A stretch of DNA of 41,813 bases from Pseudorhodoferax sp. Leaf267 (GTDB lineage: Bacteria > Pseudomonadota > Gammaproteobacteria > Burkholderiales > Burkholderiaceae_C): positions 1 to 41,813 of the forward strand of contig NZ_LMMV01000008.1 in assembly GCF_001422405.1 (NCBI RefSeq), written 5' to 3'. Of the stretch, positions 31,849 through 36,343 are shown piece by piece. The position numbers and the translations under genes were made by a program. The notes under the pieces are model-generated. The model had not been told where the DNA came from, ran no database searches, and saw only the letters and a list, made by a program, of their open reading frames with translations. Numbering within the stretch: position 1 is the first letter of the stretch; each line of letters starts with the position of its first letter.

Positions 31849-32724
31849 TCAGGCAGGTGTGCCCAGCAGCACCACCCCCAGCGCCAGCAGCGCACAGCCC
31901 AGGGCGCGGCCCGGTCCCACGCGCTCCTTGAGCACCACCATGCCCAGCAGCGCGCCGACCATCATAGACATCTCGCGCGTGGGCGCCACCACACTGAGCG
32001 GCGCGCCGAGTTCCAGCGCCTCCAGCACCAGGATGTAGGAGAGCGGCGAGAGCGCGCCCACGGCCAGCGCCAGGCCCCAGTGGCCGCGCATCGCGGCCAC
32101 GGCGTTCGCGCGGTTGCGCAGCATCCACGGCAGCAGCACGCACAGCCGCACCATGTTCGAGCACCAGTCCAGGATCACGGCCTGGATGCCCAGCGTCTTC
32201 ACGCCGTAGGCATCGACCACGGTGTAGCCGGCGATCAGCGCGCCCGTGGCGCCGCCCCAGCGCACGCCCTGCAGCGCGCGCGCCTGGCGGAACATGGCAA
32301 GCCGGCCCTGCGTGGCGATCAAGCCGATGCCGAGCACGATGGCGGCCAGGCCCAGCAGCCCGCGGCCGGTCGGCGTCTCGCCCAGCAACACGAAGGCGCC
32401 GATCGAGGACAGCAGTGGCCCGGTGCCGCGCGCCACGGGGTAGACCACCGACAGGTCGGCCACGCGGTAGCCCTTCTGCAGGCACAGGCTGTAGGCCAGG
32501 TGCAGCAGGCCGCTGGCCACGATGCAGGCCACGACGGGCCCGCTCCAGGGCAGGGTGTTGCGCGCCAGCAGCCAGGCTACCCAGGGCAGGTAGACCATGC
32601 ACGAGACCACGTTGGTGGCGGCAACGAAGGCCGGCCCCGCATGCGCGGCGCGCTTGGCCAGCAGGTTCCAGGTGGCGTGGATCAGCGCGGCCAGGACGAC
32701 CATCGAGAAGGTGAGAAATGACAT
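31849..32724 (-). CDS. EamA/DMT-superfamily transporter
   Basis: A 291-residue inner-membrane protein with about ten hydrophobic helices in two EamA-type halves. The first half includes HATWNLLAKRAA, YPVARGTGPLLSSIGAFVLLGE (a diagnostic end-of-EamA motif) and GLIATQG. The second half includes LSYILVLEALELGAPLSVVAPTREMS and VLKERVGPGRALGCALLALG. The family exports metabolites such as amino acids or nucleobase-like compounds; the substrate here is not evident from sequence. The start at ATG 32724 has only GGGGCC upstream, so translation may need activation. A ykkC-class riboswitch lies about 50-155 bp upstream, implying control by a small ligand. A 116-bp gap without clear terminator separates it from the cyclase gene. 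Confidence 0.92.
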   Translation of the reverse strand: MSFLTFSMVVLAALIHATWNLLAKRAAHAGPAFVAATNVVSCMVYLPWVAWLLARNTLPWSGPVVACIVASGLLHLAYSLCLQKGYRVADLSVVYPVARGTGPLLSSIGAFVLLGETPTGRGLLGLAAIVLGIGLIATQGRLAMFRQARALQGVRWGGATGALIAGYTVVDAYGVKTLGIQAVILDWCSNMVRLCVLLPWMLRNRANAVAAMRGHWGLALAVGALSPLSYILVLEALELGAPLSVVAPTREMSMMVGALLGMVVLKERVGPGRALGCALLALGVVLLGTPA

Positions 32725-32750
32725 CGAAGGCCCCGAATCGAACAGCGTGC

Positions 32751-32776
32751 AGGAGGAAGACTCGACGTCTCCTCCT
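32751..32776 (-). promoter_or_regulatory. Hairpin after the ykkC-class aptamer (expression platform candidate)
   Basis: In the RNA sense AGGAGGAGAC / GUCUUCCUCCU pairs with one bulge and a five-base loop. The 5' arm directly follows the aptamer's AAAAGCCCAGAGG and could alternatively pair within it. No U-run follows, so control may be translational or Rho-dependent. Confidence 0.55.
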
Positions 32777-32880
32777 CTGGGCTTTTGTCCCTCGGGTGCT
32801 GCCGCGGCGCAGGCCGCGGTGTCCGCAACGCTTGGACCAGCGGCGGGGCCTGGTGTGCCCGCCCGGAACCCTAGTTGCCA
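32777..32880 (-). promoter_or_regulatory. ykkC-class riboswitch (guanidine-I or a subtype-2 relative)
   Basis: In the leftward RNA sense the order of conserved ykkC elements is clear. It runs ACUAGGGUUCCG; a GC stem GGCGGG...CCCGCC; GCUGGUCCAAGCG; a perfect P-stem CCGCGGC-CUGC-GCCGCGG; then GCACCCGAGGGACAAAAGCCC and AGAGGAGG. This matches the ykkC consensus (CUAGGGUUCCG, CUGGUCC, GGGACAAAAGCCC). AAGCG in place of GAGAG, and CACC before the AGGG in place of ACACGG, look closer to the nucleotide-sensing subtype 2 (ppGpp/PRPP types) than to classical guanidine-I. The ligand is therefore open. It controls the EamA transporter and perhaps the genes behind it. Confidence 0.85.
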
Positions 32881-33131
32881 CTCGGTCGAACGCGCATTCT
32901 AGTGAGGGCCTGCATGCGCGCCGCCGCGTGGTCTGAGGCCCGCTCTGTCCACCGGTTTGCGGACGGAATGGCGATGGCGTCGTTGGAACTGAGGATGCCC
33001 GCCGCGCAGGGCGACTCGAACATGGCAGCCATCGATGAGGTGCGCACAACCCGGGAACTCATCGAGAAAGGCCGAGGGCAGGGCGCCCAAGGCCGATGTG
33101 TCGTCGAACCCAACTTTGCGAGGACCGAACC

Positions 33132-33871: not shown

Positions 33872-36343
<2,472 letters not shown>

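What the first reader, a model, noticed from the sequence alone, without database searches (positions are those of the whole stretch)
32725..32880. ykkC-class riboswitch, possibly a subtype-2 variant, in front of an EamA transporter
Seen: in leftward sense ACUAGGGUUCCG, CUGGUCC, a perfect variable stem, and GAGGGACAAAAGCCC, in the right order and spacing. Known: ykkC subtype 1 senses guanidine; subtype 2 forms sense ppGpp, PRPP or nucleoside diphosphates. Inferred: AAGCG instead of GAGAG and CACC...AGGG instead of ACACGG suggest it is not ordinary guanidine-I. An EamA/DMT protein would then be an exporter or importer tied to that ligand. The AGGAGG hairpin behind the aptamer is an unusual expression platform with no U-run.
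Basis: partly seen in the sequence, partly recalled or inferred. Interest (0 to 1): 0.85.

Follow-up and report, generated by a model that had tools for sequence, protein, structure and literature searches.

The report
Orphan ykkC-2d riboswitch before EamA transporter
A short RNA switch in front of a membrane transporter gene belongs to a rare known riboswitch subtype whose trigger molecule was still unknown in the papers we could read; its conserved parts suggest a phosphate-bearing trigger rather than guanidine.

Summary
The finding is real. Window 32891-32756 (minus strand) is a ykkC-family aptamer: 43.9 bits against Rfam Guanidine-I, below the curated 63, E 9.1e-7. The same leader precedes EamA relatives in 59 of 80 genome loci and 3 of 4 plasmid loci, with strong covariation.

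It is not guanidine-I. Of 201 parsed ykkC cores, 66 have C at the diagnostic pocket base, always with CACC; the other 135 have A, G or U, never with CACC. Pocket and gene (best family phn_DUF6) match subtype 2d, described in 2018-2020 as an orphan for EamA/TauE transporters: a new member of a known orphan class.

Additions: 2d leaders carry complementary tails (add-on helix P0, as in PRPP/ppGpp riboswitches) and PRPP-like pocket bases. In 55 of 63 leaders the 3' P0 strand can also pair beside the start codon. A diverged second clade of five leaders shares the pocket and shows two compensated P0 pairs. This suggests an anionic, probably phosphorylated ligand (inference).

The window's AGGAGG is conserved aptamer sequence; its hairpin is strongest in the window. 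Computed ribosome-site accessibility did not establish switch direction.

The parts
32756..32891 (-). conserved ykkC subtype 2d unit (tails, P0-P3)
   Evidence: model R1 123.6 bits (the window is one of its 62 training rows); independent RF00442 hit 32772-32885, 43.9 bits, E 9.1e-7
32885..32889 (-). 5' strand of add-on helix P0 (UCGAC)
   Evidence: 99.7% of cells paired across 62 leaders but nearly invariant; predicted unprompted by RNAalifold; the P0 of the diverged clade B has 2 of 9 pairs compensated, n = 5
32762..32766 (-). 3' strand of P0 (GUCGA); overlaps the expression helix
32874..32878 (-). P1 5' strand (GCAAC)
   Evidence: 4 of 5 pairs with changes on both sides
32825..32829 (-). P1 3' strand (GUUGC)
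32834..32870 (-). P1a/P1b arm, from GGUUCCG to CUGGUCC
   Evidence: 8 pairs, 97.4% of cells paired, 3 with changes on both sides
32829..32833 (-). pocket motif AAGCG; C at 32830 is the subtype-2 base (A46 in guanidine-I, C49 in PRPP)
   Evidence: numbering from PMC6031431
32802..32819 (-). P2 variable stem-loop
   Evidence: 5 of 6 pairs with changes on both sides
32771..32799 (-). P3 with pocket strand GCACCC, loop ACAAAAG, and 3' AGAGGAGG
32734..32764 (-). candidate expression helix CGAGUC (32764-32759) with GAUUCG (32739-32734, one G-U), next to GGGG 32734-32731
   Evidence: seen in the sequence; 55 of 63 leaders have at least 6 bp in this kind of helix, mean 6.06 against 3.36 in shuffles. 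The window itself scored 5 bp in that call, whose scan stopped 14 nt before the ATG
32751..32776 (-). AGGAGGAGAC-GUCGA-GUC(U)UCCUCCU hairpin, alternative to P0/P3
   Evidence: -15.8 kcal/mol, 3 of 200 shuffles as stable; related hairpins in L041, L049, L061, L079 (80, 17, 32 and 5 of 200); absent in three alpha leaders folded
31849..32724 (-). EamA/DMT transporter, 291 aa
   Evidence: Pfam EamA 59 bits; best NCBIfam TIGR03340 phn_DUF6, 123 bits, below its 288 cut-off

Best explanation
This is a member of ykkC subtype 2d, an orphan riboswitch class, controlling translation of a stand-alone EamA (phn_DUF6-like) transporter. Shown: the ykkC fold, the subtype-2 pocket, conserved complementary tails (P0), and in most relatives a possible helix that pairs the 3' P0 strand with bases beside the ribosome-binding site. 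Inferred: ligand binding closes the P0/P3 pocket, breaks that helix and turns the transporter on, as reported for guanidine-I, ppGpp and PRPP riboswitches. Also inferred: the ligand is probably anionic or phosphorylated, and the transporter moves it or a related compound.
For: Rfam hit. Same leader in 59 of 80 genome and 3 of 4 plasmid EamA loci. Covariation: 14 pairs changed on both sides against 4.7 in shuffles, 0 of 500 as high. Clean pocket split. R1 searches of genomes: all nine distinct loci above 120 bits, the window's among them, have an EamA relative right behind the leader (tblastn; in L211 only residues 1-116 align). Best protein family phn_DUF6, the gene the literature names for 2d. 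P0 compensated in clade B at 2 of 9 pairs, n = 5. Platform helix of 6 bp or more in 55 of 63 leaders. The window departs from 4 of 86 conserved columns, two of them in the clade-variable platform, so it does not look decayed.
Against: The published 2d alignment was not available, so membership rests on gene context and pocket logic. P0 barely varies in the main clade, and tail complementarity by length alone is no better than shuffles (mostly 5 bp against a mean of 4.6; guanidine-I tails do as well). Modelled ribosome-site accessibility does not support a consistent ON switch: in 57 alpha leaders it is lower in the bound model in 23 and higher in 7 (means 0.28 bound, 0.33 free); in five beta/gamma leaders it is higher in 3 and lower in 1 (0.31 bound, 0.18 free) (L093 left out, start codon mis-set for L088 and L099). 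No neighbour gene hints at a substrate. TauE, the other reported 2d gene, did not turn up in these searches.
Confidence: 0.8

Rival explanations
1. It is a diverged guanidine-I riboswitch that still senses guanidine and switches on a guanidine exporter.
For: Rfam's only significant match is Guanidine-I. EamA lies in the same DMT superfamily as guanidine exporters, and the 2018 authors found 2d closest to guanidine-I (PMC5912903 section 13).
Against: The base that sorts guanidine-I from subtype 2 is C in 66 parsed cores and not in the 135 others, and the CACGG strand is replaced by CACC in the same 66.
Confidence: 0.06
2. 2d senses a small toxic cation or polar compound like guanidine, through a re-cut pocket, with EamA as its exporter (the 2018 proposal).
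For: Transporter superfamily and the authors' proposal. A gene without a recurrent partner and 16 plasmid records with the leader suit a detoxification exporter.
Against: The add-on helix and the C77/C78-type bases, which contact phosphate or ribose in PRPP and ppGpp aptamers, are both conserved in 2d.
Confidence: 0.3
3. It senses ppGpp, PRPP or a nucleoside diphosphate.
For: Shared pocket bases G-C ... CACC and P0 tails.
Against: The gene is neither biosynthetic nor a hydrolase. ACAC becomes GCAC in the main clade. Subtypes 2a-2c were separated from 2d by their authors.
Confidence: 0.1
4. The window copy is a relic: its genus has lost regulation, so it no longer functions.
For: The EamA orthologs of five congeners carry no such leader, nor do the nearest homologues L036-L040. 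The window is the only one of 250 family genomes sampled above 120 bits.
Against: Only 4 of 86 conserved columns differ, and P0, P1, P2, P3 and the pocket are intact.
Confidence: 0.1

Closest known systems
ykkC subtype 2d (orphan, EamA/TauE; PMC7266159, PMC5912903)
   Same: subtype-2 pocket base, phn_DUF6/EamA-type gene downstream, ykkC core
   Different: The 2018 paper mentions extra conserved tails for 2a-2c only; tails forming P0 are present here. Switch direction unknown. The published 2d alignment was not seen.
PRPP and ppGpp riboswitches (subtypes 2b, 2a; PMC6031431)
   Same: C at the A46/C49 position, CACC pocket strand, terminal helix P0 overlapping the expression platform
   Different: gene context; GCAC for ACAC in the main clade (clade B keeps ACAC); ligand not tested
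Guanidine-I riboswitch (RF00442)
   Same: P1-P3 fold, CUAGGGUUCCG and AAAAGCC elements
   Different: GAGAG/CACGG replaced by GAGCG or AAGCG/CACC; scores below the curated cut-off
TIGR03340 phn_DUF6
   Same: best NCBIfam match of the window protein and of six relatives tested, five with the riboswitch and one without
   Different: scores of 108-126 bits against a cut-off of 288, so not members by that model

Membership tests
ykkC subtype 2d | ykkC fold (P1, P1a/b, P2, P3) | tested here: met
ykkC subtype 2d | pyrimidine at the guanidine-I A46 position | tested here: met
   C at window 32830
ykkC subtype 2d | located before an EamA (phn_DUF6) or TauE gene | tested here: met
   nine of nine genome loci above 120 bits
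ykkC subtype 2d | match to the published 2d consensus alignment | not testable with these tools
   papers that may hold it are not in the library
Guanidine-I (RF00442) | score at or above 63 bits | tested here: not met
   43.9 bits
Guanidine-I (RF00442) | A at the diagnostic pocket base and CACGG | tested here: not met
   AAGCG and CACC
PRPP/ppGpp riboswitch (2b/2a) | purine or amino-acid biosynthesis genes downstream | tested here: not met
   EamA
PRPP/ppGpp riboswitch (2b/2a) | terminal helix P0 and CACC pocket strand | tested here: met
   position mapping through the CAC motif is my inference
all of these classes | binding of the cognate ligand | not testable with these tools
   needs in-line probing

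The most novel reading that the evidence does not exclude
Subtype 2d is a further polyanion-sensing ykkC class. It keeps the phosphate-binding half-pocket of PRPP/ppGpp aptamers plus an add-on helix P0, and senses a phosphorylated metabolite or a phosphonate that its phn_DUF6-type EamA partner transports. A second, deeply diverged clade of leaders shares the pocket with different, again complementary tails.
Probability: 0.4. Interest if true: 0.75.

Novelty: new member of a known kind. Interest (0 to 1): 0.52.

Why it matters
Subtype 2d is the ykkC subtype left without a ligand in the 2020 review. A set of 62 distinct aligned leaders with a defined P0, pocket and platform, plus five diverged ones, gives full-length constructs and a narrowed ligand class, which makes that open question testable. 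It also suggests that Rfam's curated threshold passes over the class: no gathering hits in the window or in the three other 2d loci scanned (L116, L117, L252).

Tried and rejected
Neighbourhood clustering of 62 leader-bearing loci (all but the window; flanks up to about 3 kb, crude ORF calls) found no conserved partner: beyond EamA and ORFs overlapping it, the largest clusters cover 5 and 4 loci, and I did not run family searches on them. Accessibility folding gave no consistent direction. Tail complementarity by length alone did not exceed shuffles. The P3 purine pair R99/R116 is reciprocal in 59 of 62 leaders (30 G-A, 29 A-G; exceptions L052, L057, L086), but only 2 independent contrasts lie on supported branches, so it is weak evidence. 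Of 29 viral-contig stretches with a short 2d motif, one (L252) has a leader by my pattern. Of 3 and 11 stretches in two looser viral scans, L252 and L274 look ykkC-like by eye; a protein scan of the same collection returned the same two contigs. Of 111 loci fetched for weaker R1 hits (24-70 bits), 106 have guanidine-I pockets (GAGAG 100, AAGAG 5, GAGGG 1); the others are L188 (GAGUG), L123, L167, L171 (clade B) and L212 (broken 2d); weaker hits without a locus were not read. The pattern scan of 299 phylum genomes matched 6, of which four are ykkC (window, G362, G551, G473); L283 is not, and L285 was seen only as its matched string. The family scan of 164 genomes matched 4: L288, L289, L282 (the L123 locus) and L283. 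An OFF-switch reading of the beta-clade hairpin was considered and dropped for lack of support.

Full report
Observation. A full-window Rfam scan at curated thresholds gives nothing. A permissive scan of 401 bases gives Guanidine-I (RF00442) at 32885-32772 with 43.9 bits and E 9.1e-7, against a curated cut-off of 63; the next families are at E 2 and 3.1. The lone sequence does not fold unusually well (z -0.89), so the case rests on comparison.

Conservation. A protein scan with the window EamA kept the best 80 of 97 genome loci. A DNA search returned 21 plasmid records, of which I fetched four at that stage. The leader is present in 59 of the 80 genome loci and 3 of those 4 plasmid loci. After dropping one duplicate core (L114), 62 distinct leaders including the window form alignment A1. 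RNAalifold, unprompted, returns P0, P1, P1a/b, P2 and P3. Covariation is strong: 98.4% of cells paired, 14 pairs changed on both sides against 4.7 in shuffles, 0 of 500 shuffles as high, and sliding partners by 1-3 columns drops pairing to 30-48%. P1, P1b and P2 carry most of it. P0 is 99.7% paired but nearly invariant there.

Subtype. The literature sorts the ykkC family by one pocket base: A46 in guanidine-I, a pyrimidine (C49) in PRPP and ppGpp aptamers (PMC6031431, parts 1-4 of 9 read and passages found). My parser read 201 distinct ykkC cores from the loci fetched. In 66 the base is C and the P3 strand begins CACC (65 CACCC, 1 CACCT); in 135 it is A, G or U, of which 123 read CACGG and 12 CACAC, the earlier CAC of ACACACGG-type strands; none of the 135 begins CACC. 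The parser missed three A1 rows (L006, L093, L105) and L123; by eye all four have the C and CACC. The window belongs to this set, with C at 32830 and CACC at 32798-32795.

Literature match. PMC7266159 (found passages) states that subtype 2d precedes EamA (phn_DUF6) and TauE transporters and that its ligand was undetermined in 2020. PMC5912903 (introduction and discussion read) describes 2d as closest to guanidine-I, proposes a small charged toxic ligand, and speaks of extra conserved tails for 2a, 2b and 2c. The window EamA has phn_DUF6 as its best NCBIfam match (123 bits, cut-off 288); six relatives, five with the riboswitch and one without, also have it best at 108-126 bits. Searches of the open library for a later ligand listed no paper whose title or abstract start names one for 2d; I read passages, not whole texts, of five later or related papers (PMC10043782, PMC12186494, PMC10687018, PMC9574504, PMC7266159). 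The subscription papers I tried were not held, so a ligand published there would be missed.

Distribution. Model R1 gave a two-peaked result. Genomes with a match above 120 bits: 3 of 398 in a phylum sample, 1 of 250 in the window's family, the window itself, 1 of 385 in the class of G362, 2 of 18 in G362's family, and 6 of 198 in G551's family. Samples overlap, and large samples were scored with stricter filters. The distinct loci above 120 bits number nine, the window's among them. In all nine an EamA relative (60-67% identity outside the window) lies right behind the leader; in L211 only residues 1-116 align. Of 111 loci fetched for weaker hits, 106 have guanidine-I pockets; the exceptions are L188, L212 and three clade B leaders. 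The window's genus has one EamA ortholog in each of 6 genomes, at 79-81% identity to the window's. The loci of the five congeners carry no leader by pattern or by R1; the strong RF00442 hit in G003 is a GAGAG guanidine-I element.

History. On an EamA tree of 87 proteins (65 with leader, 22 without; one short row, L108, dropped), the label needs 8 changes against 19.8 in shuffles. The window is the one leader-bearing member of a fully supported 7-row clade, most simply the lineage that kept the switch. The tool warned that its bootstrap had not settled and that long branches meet, the clade B branches among them. The tree holds three of the five clade B proteins.

A second clade. Five leaders (L123, L167, L171, L289 in genomes, L274 on a viral contig) have GAGCG or AAGCG with ACACC and lie before EamA proteins 38-41% identical to the window's. 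They score 33-51 bits against R1. Their tails differ from the main clade but are again complementary over 9 pairs around a mismatch: 97.8% of cells pair, and 2 pairs show changes on both sides (G-C to A-U in two leaders, C-G to U-A in one). With only five sequences the controls are modest: 16 of 500 shuffles reach the covariation score and 73 of 500 the number of compensated pairs; slid versions pair at most 61.9%. I found L167 and L171 only on rechecking, since an earlier script read one strand.

Expression platform. In 55 of 63 leaders, bases starting in the 3' strand of P0 (CGAGAUC) can form at least 6 bp with GGUCUC(G) just before the start codon, next to or within the AGGAGG-type ribosome-binding site. 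Mean helix length is 6.06 bp against 3.36 in shuffles, with 3.71 the highest of 300 (the start codon was mis-set for L088 and L099). This helix and P0 compete for two or three bases. The eight below 6 bp are L049, L061, L077, L079, L086, L093, L099 and the window, whose equivalent CGAGUC 32764-32759 with GAUUCG 32739-32734 lies partly beyond the scanned stretch. The five beta/gamma leaders form instead, or as well, a hairpin with GUCGA in its loop; it is most stable in the window (-15.8 kcal/mol, 3 of 200 shuffles as stable), then L079 (5), L049 (17), L061 (32) and L041 (80 of 200, unremarkable). AGGAGG itself is part of the conserved aptamer tail. Computed accessibility of the ribosome-binding site did not favour an ON switch: in 57 alpha leaders it was lower in the bound model in 23 and higher in 7; in five beta/gamma leaders higher in 3 and lower in 1. 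The ON switch is inferred from the validated ykkC classes (PMC6031431), not shown.

Ligand. In the PRPP aptamer, G48, C49, C77 and C78 surround the 5-phosphate, and P0-side bases hold the pyrophosphate; in the ppGpp form, C75 pairs with the base. Mapping through the CAC motif (my inference), 2d keeps G48, C49, C75, A76, C77 and C78 and has a P0. [quoted passage not shown] paper not held). With a phn_DUF6-type transporter, my best guess is a phosphorylated or phosphonate compound. This differs from the 2018 proposal and remains an inference; no neighbour gene supports a particular compound.

Verdict. The window element is a well-preserved member of orphan subtype 2d, a new member of a known kind. 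The P0, platform and clade B observations are the useful additions.

Noticed in passing
L188 1501-1640: A ykkC variant with GAGUG (pyrimidine at the diagnostic base) but CACGG, ahead of an ORF that looks like a TRAP-type substrate-binding protein (by eye, not searched); 46.4 bits to R1. A mixed pocket that fits neither subtype cleanly.
   Followed up: partly
L212 1501-1605: A 2d leader that is intact through P1 and then breaks off (69.5 bits) near a contig end.
   Followed up: partly
L265 4001-4380: On an Agrobacterium Ti plasmid (Yub002) the 2d leader scores 139.9 bits while the EamA reading frame behind it is cut short.
   Followed up: partly
L123, L167, L171, L274, L289: Second 2d-like clade with the same pocket, different tails and more distant EamA genes.
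   Followed up: partly
L075: Record named Arthrobacter, but its EamA groups with Sphingomonas proteins on the tree; possibly mislabelled or contaminated.
   Followed up: no
L252 2647-2772: A 2d leader with EamA on a contig filed as viral; possibly host flank.
   Followed up: no
L211: Leader above 120 bits, but the EamA behind it aligns only over residues 1-116.
   Followed up: no
window 33872-36325: Large penicillin-amidase family gene upstream of the riboswitch (Pfam 679 bits), same strand.
   Followed up: no
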